Assembly: GCA_011800155.1 (NCBI GenBank)
Contig: CM022370.1
Span: forward strand, 2,728,001 to 2,792,000
Reading direction: 5' to 3'
DNA from: Flammulina velutipes
Taxonomy: Eukaryota; Basidiomycota; Agaricomycetes; Agaricales; Physalacriaceae
DNA: 64,000 nucleotides
Below, one piece after another: positions 480 through 57,585 of the stretch. Numbering within the stretch: the stretch's first letter is position 1; each line of letters starts with the position of its first letter. Both the position numbers and the translations under genes were made by a program. Under the pieces are notes generated by a model that ran no database searches, was not told the origin of the DNA, and was given only the letters and a program-made list of their open reading frames with translations.

Positions 480-3400
480 TAGTGAATAGCGCGGGTCGGC
501 CGGGTTTTGCCGGGTTGCGGGTTCGGGTCACTGCCGGGCACGGGTCATTTTACTCGATGGCCGATTCGGGTTTACCCGGCCGACCCGTACTTATATCTAC
601 GGTTGCAGCTATCCTACGCGCCACAGTGTGAAAAAGCCTCCATGGAAGCAGAATATAATAGGCATTTATGAGTAATAACTGTACAGTTCATTGACGGTGG
701 CTTGGAAGGTGGCGCCAGAAATACAATCAGCGAAGGCGGACCACCACACTAAAAAAAAGTCATGGCGTCGTCCTCGACCCGCAAGCGCAAGGTTTCTGAT
801 GCATCCTCCAAGGCGTCGCTATCATCTCGCGTCTCCAACACTGCCCGTAAAGCCGTTAACAACGTGAAGAAGGCCGCTAGGACCATCATTCCAAAGAGGC
901 CCAGAAAAAAAACTGTCGTCGAAGATTCAGATGGTAAGTTCATGAATATCTCCGCCGAAGACATACTCACATGTCACAGATAATGACGAGGATGTCGTTA
1001 TGGACAGCCAACACTCTATCCCAGCGTCTAGTCGTCCCCCATCCTCGACCGCGACATCTATTATCGATGTCGACACCAATACAGATGCCGATGAGGACAT
1101 GGATAAGCTAGAAAAACAGCTCAGTACGTCTATCCTTTCGTATCACTACACATTACTTACCATCTTGCTCCAGCAAAAGCTATTCGGAGCTGGCGCTCAC
1201 CCTATTACGCCTTCTTCGAGAACCGCCCACAGATTGAAGTCGATGTGGCCAAAGATACCGTCTACCACGTCTTCACTTGCATCAAGTGCGGTGGGACGAA
1301 ACGGCGTGGAACGACATCTGATAGTGGATCGACAGGCGCGTTAAGCCGCCACATTGTTTCTTGTTGGGGCCAGACCATTCATGACGCCGCATTTGCCACA
1401 AAGAATCTTGACAAAGCTAGAGAGATCGTCAAGAAGCACAAAGTAATGAAAGACGGTAAGATCACTTACCTCCTGCGACGTATCAAAGGGGCCGTTGAGT
1501 CGTTCAGTACGGCAGCACCGACGTCGGCTGAGATTAGGTGAGTACCAAACATCCTTGGTGAACTGTACTCCCTAACCTTTTCAAAGGGTAACGTTTGCAC
1601 GCTGGGCAGCGGAGAGCATGCGTCCCTTCAATATTGCGAAGGATCGTGGCCTCCGTTGGCTACTCCGCACTGGCCGTAACGAGTACTATATCCCCCACCC
1701 CACCACTGTTGCATCGGATGTGAAGCTACTGTTCGGCGCTGCCAAGGAAAAGTTTGCGCTGGAGTTACAGGTGAGACACATCATATACAATGTTAACTAT
1801 AACTTACATGGTATTCCAGAGTACGGATGGCTTCCTAGCGTTTGCGATCGATTGTTGGACAGCGCCAAATCATCGTCCATGGATGAGTATTGTGGTGACC
1901 TTTCTTCGGAATGGAGAACTCGTAACGGCGCTGCTCGATTTTGTTGAGTTGCCAATGGTAAGCATGAATATTGAAGAGGCGTACCATATTAATTGACCTG
2001 CAGTCTCACACTGGCGAAAATATGGCGAAGGCGTTCGACGACGTTACGGAAGACTATGGCATTCGCGATAAGGTAAGCATGCAATAGATAGAAGATGATT
2101 GAGATACTGACGAAGCCTATAGGTTGGCACGGTCACTGCAGACAATGCGTCGAGCAATGATACGTTCCATGTCCATCTTCAGGTCTTGAATCCCACGTAC
2201 CGTGGACAGCGCAGCCAAGTGCGATGCTTCGCCCACACGCTGAACCTCACTGCCGTTGGAACACTCCGTCAATTCGATCCGCCAAAACGAGTTCGCGATG
2301 GCATGGCTGTCGACAAGCTCTTGACGGAGGGCGAAAAGGAGCTACTCAAGTTGGCGGAGGACATCGAATATGATGAGCTCGAGGCAAGGCTTCTTGACGT
2401 AGGCGAAAACGGCGTGCAGGACGACGACGAGTACGACGACCTGCCCGATCTTGTCGATGCGATGACAGAACAGGCGAGGACAGAGTGGGCAGACAATGTC
2501 ATGCCCGTTCGAACCGCGTTACTCAAAGTGAGTCCATTCATTTACCTAATAGACGCTCCAGGCATTGAATGTGCGTTGCCAGGCCCGCAAGATCTCCTTC
2601 AAAATTATAAACTCACCCACGTTGCTGATGGTTAGCTGGTTCAAACTGCTAGATAAACATGGTATTGGCGAGCGCATGCTACCGCGCGACGTCTCGACGC
2701 GGTGGAATTCAACCCATGATATGTTAAAGGTATTCCTTGAGATGAAAGAGTATATTAATGAATTCACGGCGGAGCGTGAGAATGGGCTTCGTGATTACGA
2801 ACTTGATCTAACCGAGTGGGAGATGTTGACCCAACTGGTCAGCGTGCTTACGGTTCGTGGTTCTTTTTCCCATGCATTCAATTGCTCACTCATTCCTTTC
2901 TTCCTTTCCCCCCACTTTCGTATCCCTGTCAATGCATCTCTATCGCCGTCGCTCTTGCCATCGCTGGCCTACCAACTGCCACATCATCGTCTAACCAACC
3001 GCCAACTATGTCAAATCATGCAGGTCTTGAAGGACGCCACGCTCTATTTCTCAACGGACTGTCCAAGTGTCTCCTCTGTCATCCCCGCCATGGACGCCAT
3101 TGACGAACGCCTCACCAATGCATCGATATCAAACCAACGATACGCCGCTCCTATCCGTGCCGCACTCACCATTGGAAAGCGTGTCCTGAACAAATATTAT
3201 AGTTTGTCGGATGGATCTGACGTTTATCGTATCAGTATGAGTACGTGTCCTTGTTTGGTTTCTTGCTTGCCTACTCATAGCCGCTCAACTAGTTCTTCAT
3301 CCGTCACACAAACTCGATTATTTTCGCAAGCAGGACTGGCCGCGTGACTGGATCGACACGGCACTTGCAGTGACGCGAGAGGTTTGGGAGAGTCGGTACC

Positions 3401-4263
3401 GAGACAGTATGGTGACGGCGCTGGATAGTGCAAGCATTGAGGAGGAGACAGACAAGAACAAACCTGTACGTCGTATTACTTACATTCGTGCAGATTTACT
3501 AACCCTACACTGCCTAGGTCAACGAGTTTACTAAACTCATGAAGGAGGGCATACGTGTCGCCACATCGGATGCCGACGAGCTCGACCGTTATCTCGCTGA
3601 TAGTCGCGTCACTACGGAGGACCCACTCGCATGGTGGTTGGGCAATCGCTCGACATATCCATCACTCGCGCAGATGGCCATTGATTTCCATTCGATTCCT
3701 GGTATGTCGTCCTTGCATAGTTCTTTTCGTTTACTCATACAGTACACCTCTTGTAGCTACATCAGTCGCTGTTGAGCGCACATTCAGCCGTGGCCGAATC
3801 CTACTGTCCCACTTACGCAATCGCCTGCGTAATGCTACAGTCCGTGCCCTCATGTGTTTCGGCGACTGGAGCCGTAACGGAATGCTTGACGATGGTGAGA
3901 TGGCGCAGCGTATCGAAGGGAGCACAAGGAAGGCAGCGAAGGAAAAGTCAGAGAAGCAGAAGGGTGACGACGACGACGTTGACGACACCTTAGTCGACGA
4001 CGCTATCTACCTATAATTCAGCTCATTTTTTTATTTTCATTTCTGTATGTTGTCCTTAAAGTAAAAGTAGATATTCGTATTTACATTTAGAGTACCTCGA
4101 TAAATACTCTATTTCTGTGTTCTGAACACGGGTACCCGACATGCCCGACCCGTAAATATCCCGACCCGTCCTAAACCCGACCCGTACTGTTACGGGTTCG
4201 GGTTTGTCCGTTTCGGGATATTTCAGGACATTCTGACCCGGACCCGACCCGCGCTATTCACTA
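480..4263 (+). mobile_element. hAT-superfamily DNA transposon, apparently complete
   Basis: The element starts with TAGTGAATAGCGCGGGTCGG at 480-499, and the exact reverse complement lies at 4244-4263, giving 20-base perfect terminal inverted repeats. The 8 bases TGTGTATC flank it on both sides (472-479 and 4264-4271). That is the target-site duplication length expected for hAT elements. Both subterminal regions (about 490-600 and 4125-4255) are dense in CGGGT and CCCGACCCG motifs in both orientations, which are candidate transposase-binding sites. Inside is one multi-exon transposase gene on the plus strand without visible stops or frameshifts. Perfect ends, perfect duplication and an open gene suggest a young and possibly active copy. 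Activity is inferred, not shown. Confidence 0.93.
762..4016 (+). CDS. hAT transposase with BED zinc finger
   Basis: This is the transposase expected to cut and paste the surrounding element. The gene is split by about ten short introns; the first is 934-979. Exons join into one frame from ATG 762 to TAA 4014-4016. The N-terminus is basic and looks like a nuclear localisation signal (TRKRKVSDA; then KRPRKKTVV). A BED-type finger follows, with CIKCGG and a later HIVSC. The RNase-H-like core shows FAIDCWTAP (first acidic residue region) and VTADNASSND (second acidic residue), then the hAT hallmark CFAHTLNL. The C-terminal dimerisation region has the typical SVAVERTFSRGR with a downstream RNRL. 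The tail is acidic and lysine rich. No premature stop was seen in any exon. Exact splice sites are my reading and some may shift by a few codons. Confidence 0.9.
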
Positions 4264-31343: not shown

Positions 31344-32270
31344 TCACAATGTTAAACCGACTGAGAAATCACGATAGAACACATCTCTTTCTTCCATCGT
31401 CTCGTATAAATCGTGCCTCATGATATCGTCTTCAATCCTTAGCAGAACGGGATACGACCACCCCGGCACACGTCTGCCAGATAGAAAGGTTGACTGCGAG
31501 TCCAAGTTCCATATATGAGGCTGTACGCCAGCACAGCAAATGCCCATCACAAGTGTCAGTAGCCTCAGCATCCTCGCTATGGCCTCACCCTCCGAGCCGT
31601 TGGCAACGCCCAATAGCTGGATGCACATACATTGTATATGTTCTTCGTACCTTTCCGCGCTCTCTTTGAGATCATGGAGCCTATCGATGAGATCCTGGAG
31701 TTTCGTAGGTAGAGCCTCGGTAAAGATCGTACCCTTTGAGGGTTTCCCAAACCAACGCGCGTAAATCGACGTCGGCCGTGGGCCATATTTGTCCCGCATA
31801 ATGGAAACGAGAGGCTCTTCCATCGAGAGGATACTATCCTCACTGGCCTCGATAGCAACACGAAGTGCATCGAAGGAAGCTGCCATCTTTCGGATCTGTG
31901 AGCGCACTTCTTCGTCGAGTTGTTGACCGGAATCAAGTAGACCAGCACATCTGTCTAGAAGAGCTGCCACGTCCTGTTGGGCATCACAGAGGCTGGATAG
32001 GGCTTTATGTGTGATATCACGAAAAGACGATACAATGGGGCCGCATGTTGGTTCGAGCGTGTGGGCATAGAATATGAGATTGACAGCGCGGAAGATATAT
32101 TGGTGTTCTGCGTTGTTGAGGTCGATGGGAACTTGAAGGGGCATGAGCCACTCGGTCTGTTCAACGGGTAGTATCATAAGCATAGTGAACGTATCGTGAG
32201 AACAAACCTTCAAGTAGGATTTGATACCAACAAGCGTCGTTTCCCGCTCACTAAACGACAATCCATACAT
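31344..32270 (-). CDS. Lineage-specific protein, paralogue of the 56.7-kb gene
   Basis: I do not recognise the family. Read with one intron: exon 1 MYGLSFSERETTLVGIKSYL, an intron starting GTTTGTTC, then exon 2 from TEWLMPLQVPID to the stop at 31344. The protein is about 290 residues, mostly alpha-helical, with DAQQDVAALLDRC and later YEEHIQCMCIQLLG. The highly conserved centre is KYGPRPTSIYARWFGKPSKG. The copy at 56688-57585 has the same intron position and about 60 percent identical residues by eye in exon 2. Purifying selection between the two copies makes a real gene likely. No signal peptide, membrane span or catalytic motif is evident. Confidence 0.75.
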   Translation of the reverse strand: MYGLSFSERETTLVGIKSYLKVCSHDTFTMLMILPVEQTEWLMPLQVPIDLNNAEHQYIFRAVNLIFYAHTLEPTCGPIVSSFRDITHKALSSLCDAQQDVAALLDRCAGLLDSGQQLDEEVRSQIRKMAASFDALRVAIEASEDSILSMEEPLVSIMRDKYGPRPTSIYARWFGKPSKGTIFTEALPTKLQDLIDRLHDLKESAERYEEHIQCMCIQLLGVANGSEGEAIARMLRLLTLVMGICCAGVQPHIWNLDSQSTFLSGRRVPGWSYPVLLRIEDDIMRHDLYETMEERDVFYRDFSVGLTL

Positions 32271-54486: not shown

Positions 54487-55109
54487 GTGAGTGGGTGGGC
54501 TGGGAGGGGAAGAGCGGGGCTCGTTGCATTCGTCGGCATTCTAGAAGCAAACAAACACTTATACTCACACATTTATCGCATCCACACTGATAATCTTTAG
54601 GACGTTCTTTTTACCCTTTCTTGTCATAGGACTTACATTCTTTCATCCGTTCCTTTTTACTTTGCTTTCGTATTCGTGGGCCGTCGCTCGCGATGTATTT
54701 GTACGGTTGTATCTGTAGTCTAATTAAATAACTTTTCGTAGACAGATGAGCCTCTGATTTTGTAGGTTCAAGGTTATCTAAAATGTGTACTACGGTGTAG
54801 TCATTGATGCGTCCAGCGACTACAGCCGATACTAGACTGTCAAAGCGTGATATCACATTATTAGTCATCCAAATTGATACGCCACAATATCTCAGTTTTC
54901 TCGCAACGAAGACTGAGTCGTCTGCAATACCACGTACGTTTGAATATAAGGAGTGTAAGCTGTATGCTACGATAGATATTCCAGTCAGTATTACCAGCCT
55001 CTTCAAGAGCCAAGCCTCAGTATCACATGATGAATGGGCCATGTTAATCAATATTGTAGCCTGGAGATCCCTGCTCGAAAACGTTCGTTGGAACTCTCTT
55101 ATATAGAGC
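54487..55109. other. Intergenic region left of the nested elements
   Basis: About 620 bases, presumably GH16 3' UTR and spacer. A 146-codon minus-strand open frame (54611-55051) has no family resemblance and no introns, so I do not call it a gene. Confidence 0.45.
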
Positions 55110-55141
55110 CTGGTTCAGAGGGAGGGGGTAGGAGGCGTAGC

Positions 55142-55149
55142 CGCGTAGG
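55142..55149. repeat. Left 8-bp target-site duplication of E'
   Basis: CGCGTAGG, repeated at 56168-56175; it lies inside the left terminal repeat of F. Confidence 0.9.
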
Positions 55150-55177
55150 TAGTGTTGCCGTGAGCTGAGCCTGAGCT

Positions 55178-55185
55178 GAGCTGAG
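55178..55185. repeat. Left 8-bp target-site duplication of E
   Basis: GAGCTGAG, repeated at 55691-55698; both copies lie inside E'. Confidence 0.9.
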
Positions 55186-55690
55186 TAGTGTTGCCGTGAG
55201 CGTGAGTTGGCTCAGTGTGAGCCGCGGCTCAGCTCAGCTCATTGCCTTTTAAGGGCAGCTCATTGATGGCTCGCTGATGGGGCGGTCGTGGCGTCGTAAA
55301 TAAGTCAGCAGCGTATATCTCTAAGGTTGTTGAAGAGTGACACTTGGAAGTTGCTCTCGATCGTAAGTATAAGCTATACAGTACTATTTTGGCTCGATTC
55401 AGAGTGTTATTCCTCACTCAATCTAAGCCAGAATTGTCAAGTCTTCCGGCACTGCTATTCGTCTTAAATACAAGTGTAAAAATGACCGGGATGCAGTGTC
55501 ATATGTTTAACTAAGTATATCCTAGGATTTTACTGACATATAACATTGGGAAGCTGTCCTGACATCGAGAACGAACTGTGAGGAGAGTGTGAGCCATCAA
55601 TGAGCCATGAGCCATCATGAGCTGAGCCATCACGAGCCATCATGTCGATCAAAGCTCAGCTCAGCTCAGGCTCAGCTCACGGCAACACTA
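55186..55690. mobile_element. Non-autonomous element E (505 bp), inserted inside E'
   Basis: It begins TAGTGTTGCCGTGAGCGTGA and ends GCTCACGGCAACACTA, 16-base terminal inverted repeats. GAGCTGAG precedes it (55178-55185) and follows it (55691-55698) as an exact 8-base duplication that lies within E'. Subterminal sequence is rich in GAGCTGAGC and GAGCCATCA repeats. The only open frame is 62 codons and is mirrored in both copies, so it is not evidence for a gene. E and E' differ at a single base over the 477 shared aligned positions (A at 55545 against the complement of C at 55808). Confidence 0.94.
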
Positions 55691-56167
55691 GAGCTGAGCT
55701 TTGATCGACATGATGGCTCGTGATGGCTCAGCTCATGATGGCTCATGGCTCATTGATGGCTCACACTCTCCTCACAGTTCGTTCTCGATGTCAGGACAGC
55801 TTCCCAACGTTATATGTCAGTAAAATCCTAGGATATACTTAGTTAAACATATGACACTGCATCCCGGTCATTTTTACACTTGTATTTAAGACGAATAGCA
55901 GTGCCGGAAGACTTGACAATTCTGGCTTAGATTGAGTGAGGAATAACACTCTGAATCGAGCCAAAATAGTACTGTATAGCTTATACTTACGATCGAGAGC
56001 AACTTCCAAGTGTCACTCTTCAACAACCTTAGAGATATACGCTGCTGACTTATTTACGACGCCACGACCGCCCCATCAGCGAGCCATCAATGAGCTGCCC
56101 TTAAAAGGCAATGAGCTGAGCTGAGCCGCGGCTCACACTGAGCCAACTCACGCTCACGGCAACACTA
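55186..56167. repeat. Near-perfect 477-bp-arm palindrome formed by E and E'
   Basis: Left arm 55186-55662 and right arm 55691-56167 are reverse complements with one mismatch; the spacer is 28 bases (55663-55690). It arises from the head-to-head arrangement of the two 505-bp copies. Transcription across it would give a long hairpin RNA. Confidence 0.95.
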
Positions 56168-56687
56168 CGCGTAGGTCCCTCTATCAAAATATTTTGATGA
56201 TCCGAGTGATGGCCTCCTTGCGGCACATCACGGGATATTTCAACCTGTGGCGTTCTCATCAATTGGCGGCTCTCTGTATCCACTACAGACCTTAGCACTG
56301 AAGTGTACCTCCAAGTTAGATTAGTAAAAAGCTCTAACCGTCTTGAGAGTGTTTCGTTGTCCCGTTTCTTACAGTAATGGTTGTAAGCCCTTGTAAATAT
56401 TGTAAAGGGTAACTTCTGGTGTGTTTAACTGCTTACTGGGCAATATTTAACGAATATCAGCCGAGAACTATTGACTCGAGCTCACTAATATTTAAATTAT
56501 TGTAGTGAAACTTGCGCCACGACGCAATGACCGGACCGACGGCCATCACTCGGATCATCAAAATCTTTTGATAGAGGGACCTACGCCAACGAACCCCTCC
56601 CTCTGCACCAGTCTATCGATATTGATGCTCTGTGGGACTCATCGTTTCTTAAGCACCTGCCTTGAGGAGCCCGTGAGACGATAGACC

Positions 56688-57585
56688 ATGGGAGCGATAG
56701 AACGCCTCGGCGAATGGACGATGGCTGGTATTGAATCCTACTCAGAGGTTTGTTGTCTTGACATCTTCATTCCATTTACCTGATGAACAGACCAAATGGC
56801 TCATGCCTCTCCAAGTCCCGATCGATATCAACAACCAGGAGATGCGATATACCTTCGCCGCTACCAACCTCATCTTCGATGCCCACTCGCTCGAACCCCT
56901 ATGCTCCCCCATTGTGTTCTCTTTCCGCAATTTTACTCTCAAAGTCCTCTCCACCCTCTATGACGCCCAACAGGACGCGGCAGCCCTTCTAGATATATGT
57001 TCTAGACGTCTTGATTCCGGTGAAGAGCTCGACGAAGCAGCACATACACAAATCCGAAAACTAGCAGCTTCCTTCGATGCGGTTCGTGTTGCTATCAAGG
57101 CCGGCGAGGACAACATCCTCTCCATAAAGGATCCTCTCCTCTCCATTATGGGGGATAAATATGGCCCACGGCCGACCTCGGTTTACGCGCGGTGGTTTGG
57201 GAAACCCTCCAAGGGTACGATGTTCATTGAGGCTTTACCTACGAAACTCCAAGACCTCGCCGCCCAGCTTCAACAGCTACGAGAGATCGTGAACTTGTAC
57301 GAAGAGCATATTCAATGCATGTGTCTCCAGCTGCTGGGTATTACCGATGGCTCGGAGGCAGAGGTCATAGCGGGAAAGCTGCGGCTGTTGACTGAGGAGA
57401 TGCGCTCTTGCGTTTCTATTATGCCAGATCATCTGATATGGCTTCAGATAGACGAAGAACTCATTGGCAAGCCACCGATGTGGGCGTGGCCCGTCATCCG
57501 AAGGATGGAGGATAACATTATAAGACGCGATGACTGGGACACGATGCTTGAGAGAGATGCATTTTATTACCCTGTTACGAGATAA
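56688..57585 (+). CDS. Lineage-specific protein, paralogue of the 31.3-kb gene
   Basis: Two exons: MGAIERLGEWTMAGIESYSE (from ATG 56688), an intron GTTTGTTG..GAACAG, then TKWLMPLQVPIDINNQ to the stop at 57583-57585. About 285 residues, mainly helical. Conserved blocks shared with 31344-32270 are TLYDAQQDAAALLDICSRRL, QIRKLAASFDAVRVAIKAG, DKYGPRPTSVYARWFGKPSK and YEEHIQCMCLQLLG. The copies diverge most at the C-terminus. It starts 76 bases from the right end of the nested elements. I do not know the family or function. Confidence 0.75.

What the first reader, a model, noticed from the sequence alone, without database searches (positions are those of the whole stretch)
55110..56611. Three-level nest of non-autonomous transposons (E inside E' inside F)
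E (55186-55690) is flanked by GAGCTGAG duplications that lie in E'. E' (55150-56167) is flanked by CGCGTAGG duplications that lie in the terminal repeat of F (55110-56611). E and E' are both exactly 505 bp, in opposite orientation, and differ at one base. This gives an ordered history: F, then E' into F, then E into E'. The near identity implies recent movement, so a matching active transposase should exist elsewhere in the genome.
Basis: seen in the sequence. Interest (0 to 1): 0.85.

Follow-up and report, generated by a model that had tools for sequence, protein, structure and literature searches.

The report
Nested jumping genes at one hotspot
In a fungal genome a small jumping element landed inside another and was then hit by a near-identical copy of itself; the landing spot bears what looks like the scar of an earlier visit and was also hit in two other copies of the host element, which suggests a hotspot.

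Summary
The nest is real. E (55186-55690) and E' (55150-56167, split by E) are 505-bp elements in opposite orientation, one base apart, each with an exact 8-bp duplication; they belong to a 12-copy hAT-type MITE family (10 of 12 with exact 8-bp duplications). F was mis-bounded: it is 55057-56615, with 9-bp duplications. Three things go beyond the finding. (1) The 16 bases left of E' (GGCGTAGC CGCGTAGG) equal the palindromic hAT footprint predicted from the empty 8-mer of a substitution-free sister F: an earlier element came and left. (2) Two other F copies carry E at the same 8-mer, and one also carries another hAT-type MITE, H, at an overlapping 8-mer, so F arms look like a hotspot. (3) E and E' share a base absent from the other 10 copies: E probably came from E' or its sister, or gene conversion made them alike. 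No intact autonomous partner was found; the nearest is a single-copy hAT with one E-like end. Ordinary in kind, unusually legible; the hotspot rests on few events.

The parts
55057..56615 (+). F, non-coding element with imperfect subterminal inverted arms, about 525 bp without its inserts and the 8 extra bases; superfamily unresolved (9-bp duplications)
   Evidence: ends set by alignment with 15 other copies
55048..55056 (.). left 9-bp duplication of F, TCAATATTG
56616..56624 (.). right 9-bp duplication of F, TCGATATTG (one mismatch)
55134..55149 (+). GGCGTAGCCGCGTAGG, palindromic hAT-type excision footprint of an earlier insertion at GGCGTAGG; its right half is also the left duplication of E'
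   Evidence: 8 bases more than in the other aligned F copies; equals the footprint computed from the L068 empty site
55150..56167 (-). E', 505-bp hAT-type MITE split by E
56168..56175 (.). right duplication of E', CGCGTAGG
55178..55185 (.). left duplication of E, GAGCTGAG, inside E'
55186..55690 (+). E, 505-bp hAT-type MITE, ends TAGTGTTGCCGTGAGC
55691..55698 (.). right duplication of E, GAGCTGAG
55185..55662 (+). left arm of the E/E' palindrome (478 bp, 477 match)
55691..56168 (-). right arm of the E/E' palindrome
56169..56214 (+). inner left arm of F (46 bp), beginning inside the E' target
56541..56586 (-). inner right arm of F, part of an intact GGCGTAGG site

Best explanation
E and E' are non-autonomous hAT-superfamily MITEs moved by a hAT transposase supplied in trans, by cut-and-paste with 8-bp target duplications. 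The history is: F inserted at this locus (9-bp duplication). A hAT-type element, probably of the E family, inserted at GGCGTAGG in F's left arm and was excised; the hairpin-capped flanks were opened and joined, leaving GGCGTAGC CGCGTAGG. E' then inserted at the right half of that footprint, in the register also used in two other F copies. A second copy, E, which is E' itself or its replicated sister, inserted into a target 28 bp inside the end of E', in opposite orientation, and made a 478-bp palindrome. Shown: the boundaries, duplications, footprint sequence, empty sites, shared variant and recurrence at the 8-mer. Inferred: the transposase source, the identity of the excised element, the sister-copy route, and that the recurrence reflects target preference.
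For: Exact 8-bp duplications in 10 of 12 E copies. TIR 12+12 with 0 in the control. The footprint computed from the L068 empty site equals the observed 16 bases. None of the 15 other aligned F copies has the extra 8 bases. Window F shows no substitutions against L068, with a 3-base length difference besides the footprint. E sits at CCTACGCC/GGCGTAGG in F copies L005 and L008. H sits at overlapping GCCAACGG in L005. Seven other copies lie 1-4 substitutions from E', and E and E' alone of 12 have G at alignment column 174. [quoted passage not shown] PMC4763223 (passages) describes hairpin-capped breaks made by Kat1, a hAT-derived transposase of the yeast Kluyveromyces lactis.
Against: No autonomous element with these ends was found. 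L009 lacks a duplication and L003 matches at 6 of 8. The footprint is a single case. The duplication of the window's F has one mismatch. E/E' similarity could partly come from gene conversion between palindrome arms. Reads were not available to test the assembly.
Confidence: 0.86

Rival explanations
1. E spread among F copies by ectopic gene conversion or recombination between F arms, not by repeated targeted insertion.
For: F copies are similar and repeated. L008 and the window share the left arm and the same relative orientation of E.
Against: L005 has E in the right arm and in the opposite orientation relative to GGCGTAGG, which arm-to-arm copying would not give. The E copies E', L008 and L005 share no derived variant with one another. 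Window F is 87.4% identical to L008 F but has no substitution against empty L068. The footprint next to E' indicates transposition.
Confidence: 0.1
2. The E/E' palindrome is an assembly or fold-back sequencing artefact.
For: A near-perfect palindrome is a known risk (general knowledge), and read data were not available.
Against: Each element has its own exact 8-bp duplication (GAGCTGAG; CGCGTAGG), E' is interrupted exactly at a duplication, and E and E' differ at a base. A fold-back artefact would not create two separate duplication pairs.
Confidence: 0.03
3. E and E' look alike because of gene conversion within the palindrome; the second insertion need not have come from E' or its sister.
For: Both have column-174 G, absent in the other 10 copies, which conversion would also give.
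Against: One base still differs. Sister-copy transposition explains the shared base without conversion, and other dispersed copies are nearly as close.
Confidence: 0.3

Closest known systems
hAT-superfamily MITEs and Ac/Ds-type footprints
   Same: 8-bp duplications, ends beginning TAGTG, palindromic footprint built from flanking bases
   Different: No autonomous partner identified here; repeated use of one 8-mer inside another element's arm
hAT insertion hotspots of Hermes in vitro (consensus nTnnnnAn; PMC2803484, passages)
   Same: repeated insertion at particular sites, beyond what a short consensus predicts
   Different: GGCGTAGG does not fit nTnnnnAn; here the hotspot lies in a mobile element
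Mutator-like (MULE) elements with about 9-bp duplications (superfamily trait recalled)
   Same: F makes 9-bp duplications and has subterminal inverted arms
   Different: Outer ends are short and imperfect; no transposase could be linked to F

Membership tests
hAT superfamily (E family) | 8-bp target-site duplication | tested here: met
   10 of 12 copies exact, 1 partial (6 of 8), 1 none
hAT superfamily (E family) | short terminal inverted repeats of hAT type (YAGNG start; recalled) | tested here: met
   TAGTGTTGCCGTGAGC at both ends of 12 of 12 copies; two hAT-domain elements of the same genome with both ends found also begin TAGTG
hAT superfamily (E family) | palindromic flank-derived excision footprint | tested here: met
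   observed equals predicted at 55134-55149, one case; that the excised element was an E copy is inferred
hAT superfamily (E family) | mobilised by a hAT transposase with matching ends | tested here: inconclusive
   only a single-copy hAT on C8 with one E-like end; no second end found
Mutator-like superfamily (F) | about 9-bp target duplication | tested here: met
   14 of 16 copies exact (L070 counted with 2 bases lost at its left end), window 8 of 9, L080 not determined
Mutator-like superfamily (F) | shares ends with a MULE transposase element | tested here: inconclusive
   one PF10551 match in the genome; in the 9 kb around it no 9-bp-flanked inverted pair under the settings used and only seven one-mismatch, unpaired matches to 8-base F ends

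The most novel reading that the evidence does not exclude
The arms of F are a preferred landing site for hAT transposons of this fungus: at least two hAT-type MITE families home to a 13-bp stretch of the F arm, so that one mobile element systematically parasitises another's ends, with repeated insertion, excision and re-insertion at one nucleotide position.
Probability: 0.4. Interest if true: 0.6.

Novelty: new member of a known kind. Interest (0 to 1): 0.42.

Why it matters
It is a compact natural record of hAT transposition in what is most likely a mushroom-forming fungus: insertion, excision footprint, re-insertion at the same place and insertion of a copy into itself, with empty-site controls in the same genome. 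If the hotspot holds, it offers a defined target for asking what hAT transposases see beyond an 8-mer. The 478-bp palindrome would make long double-stranded RNA if transcribed, which could be tested for silencing of the family.

Tried and rejected
Autonomous partner of E. The exact end is found only in the 12 MITEs. With up to 3 mismatches the control is fuller than the search (103 forward and 121 reverse against 145 and 156), so weaker ends cannot be told from chance that way. TAGTGTTGCYGYGAG has 28 matches: the 24 known ends, one end each of two MITEs of a related family (L083, L084), a solo end on C4 (L085) and the C8 hAT; no second end was found for C8 or C4 within the stretches fetched. 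For the hAT-domain matches, 30 of 32 had loci cut out, with about 1.5 kb on each side, so ends farther out would be missed. The window's own hAT (480-4263) and the C13 hAT (L098) have different ends.

Superfamily of F: the single MULE-domain locus, C3:117853, gave no pair of F-like ends. An F-like pair of arms on C12 (L090) flanks a 556-aa reading frame that was not identified. A 37-bp F right end on C4 (L088) begins at the hotspot; what precedes it matched none of E, F, the related MITE or the two hATs used as queries and was not identified. These and other short partial F matches (C4:1149046, C5:2576245, C9:2267200, two on C12) were left out of the F counts.

The idea that E always inserts in one orientation relative to the F motif was dropped: L005 is opposite to the window and L008. 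The chance figures for the hotspot are post hoc and only indicate scale; none is used as a probability here. Two first tries were one base off and were redone: the F duplication table (redone) and the right end of H (redone).

Papers: searches were seen as listings with the start of abstracts; none of the entries shown described recurrent hAT insertion in another element's arm, but the lists are capped and most subscription journals are not held. Passages only were read of PMC8151067, PMC3744419, PMC4561436, PMC4763223 and PMC2803484.

Full report
Setting. The window is C3:2728001-2792000 of a 38.1-Mb, 23-contig genome. A protein of the window is 52% identical to one of the mushroom Cylindrobasidium torrendii, with weaker matches in other mushroom-forming fungi (10 hits in all), so this is most likely an agaric or a near relative; the species is not known.

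The nest. The genome holds 12 copies; all 24 exact copies of the 16-base end belong to them. Ten of 12 have exact 8-bp duplications, L003 matches at 6 of 8, L009 has none. E' is one substitution from L002, and L003, L004, L005, L006 and L008 are each 1-3 substitutions from L002 (L008 with a 9-bp deletion as well). L009 is more diverged and L010-L012 form a subfamily about 10% away. For most of the family this is the picture of a recent burst. E and E' alone have G at alignment column 174, and E has one further private change (column 360); E therefore probably derives from E' or its replicated sister, or the arms were homogenised.

F. Thirteen fetched copies, two composite loci (L005, L008) and the window were aligned; short partial matches were left out. 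The ends are TAGCCTGG and CCAGTCTA, with 9-bp duplications exact in 14 of 16 (L070 counted with 2 bases lost at its left end, read by eye), 8 of 9 in the window, and undetermined in the rearranged L080. F is thus 55057-56615. L068 has no substitution against the window's F and L069 is 99.2% identical; both carry an empty, single GGCGTAGG. Apart from the footprint there is a 3-base length difference to L068, so one search's exact-suffix test was false.

The footprint. Left of E' the window reads GGCGTAGC CGCGTAGG, 8 bases more than the 15 other aligned F copies. Ac/Ds footprints are palindromic, built from the flanking bases (PMC4561436, passages), and hairpin-capped breaks are described for a hAT-derived transposase of a yeast (PMC4763223, passages). 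Taking the empty 8-mer of L068, doubling it and complementing the two bases at the junction gives exactly the observed 16 bases. So a hAT-type element most likely sat here before E' and left; E' then entered the right half of its scar. That the first visitor was an E copy is inferred from the position alone.

A hotspot. E copies in L005 (C12) and L008 (C2) lie in F copies at the same 8-mer, CCTACGCC = GGCGTAGG. L008 is in the left arm, as in the window; L005 is in the right arm and in the opposite relative orientation, which speaks for independent events. L005 also holds H, a 418-bp element with ends TAGGGTAGCGG and duplication GCCAACGG, which overlaps E's target by 3 bases; the order of E and H there cannot be told. 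H has five copies at 98-100% identity (412-418 bp), all five with exact 8-bp duplications, plus one remote match (66%) that was not examined. GGCGTAGG occurs 1,105 times in the genome, and the two E insertions with exactly that duplication are both in F arms, as is E' at CGCGTAGG. Eleven of the F copies measured without inserts and the L070 copy are 517-529 bp long and so carry no insert (L068-L079). Counting the footprint, E', L008-E, L005-E and L005-H, five events share a 13-base stretch; a cautious count that lets L008 and the window be linked by conversion gives four. The right arm of L078 has a 3-base loss inside the same 8-mer, possibly another scar. The other E insertions (7 of the 10 with exact duplications) use different 8-mers, among them E in E', so the site is preferred at most, not required. 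The sample is small and the reading post hoc.

The missing partner. The hAT-dimerisation search gave 32 matches, of which 30 had loci cut out. Among these loci only the C8 one shows an E-like end (TAGTGTTGCTGCGAG), about 0.4 kb beyond the domain; it is single-copy and no second end was found.

Verdict. A correct and well-read observation with wrong outer limits. What is there is ordinary in kind (hAT-type MITEs nested in another MITE), but the history is unusually complete, and the recurrent hAT landing in F arms is worth a population test.

Noticed in passing
window 480-4263; C3:2722834-2726616; C3:2712336 onward: Three nearly identical (99.9% or more) 3.78-kb hAT elements (ends TAGTGAATAGCGCG) within about 20 kb, each with its own 8-bp duplication (TGTGTATC, ATCACCGC, ACTTTTTA): looks like recent local hopping of a probably autonomous hAT.
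   Followed up: partly
L005:1003-2467 (C12:1490163-1491627): A second composite: F with E and the different hAT-type MITE H inserted 5 bp apart in its right arm.
   Followed up: yes
L083:172-847, L084:166-834 (C2): A related MITE family of 669-676 bp, ends TAGTGTTGCCGCGA, exact 8-bp duplications.
   Followed up: partly
L098:252-4106 (C13): A 3855-bp element holding a hAT domain match, with ends TAGTG(T/C)TGTTCC and duplication CGTATATT.
   Followed up: no
window 31561-32170 and 56777-57386: 613 bp at 78% identity in inverted orientation; the second lies in a 284-aa reading frame next to F.
   Followed up: no
L080 left end (C7): An F copy whose left end is preceded by an inverted copy of its own terminal sequence.
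   Followed up: no
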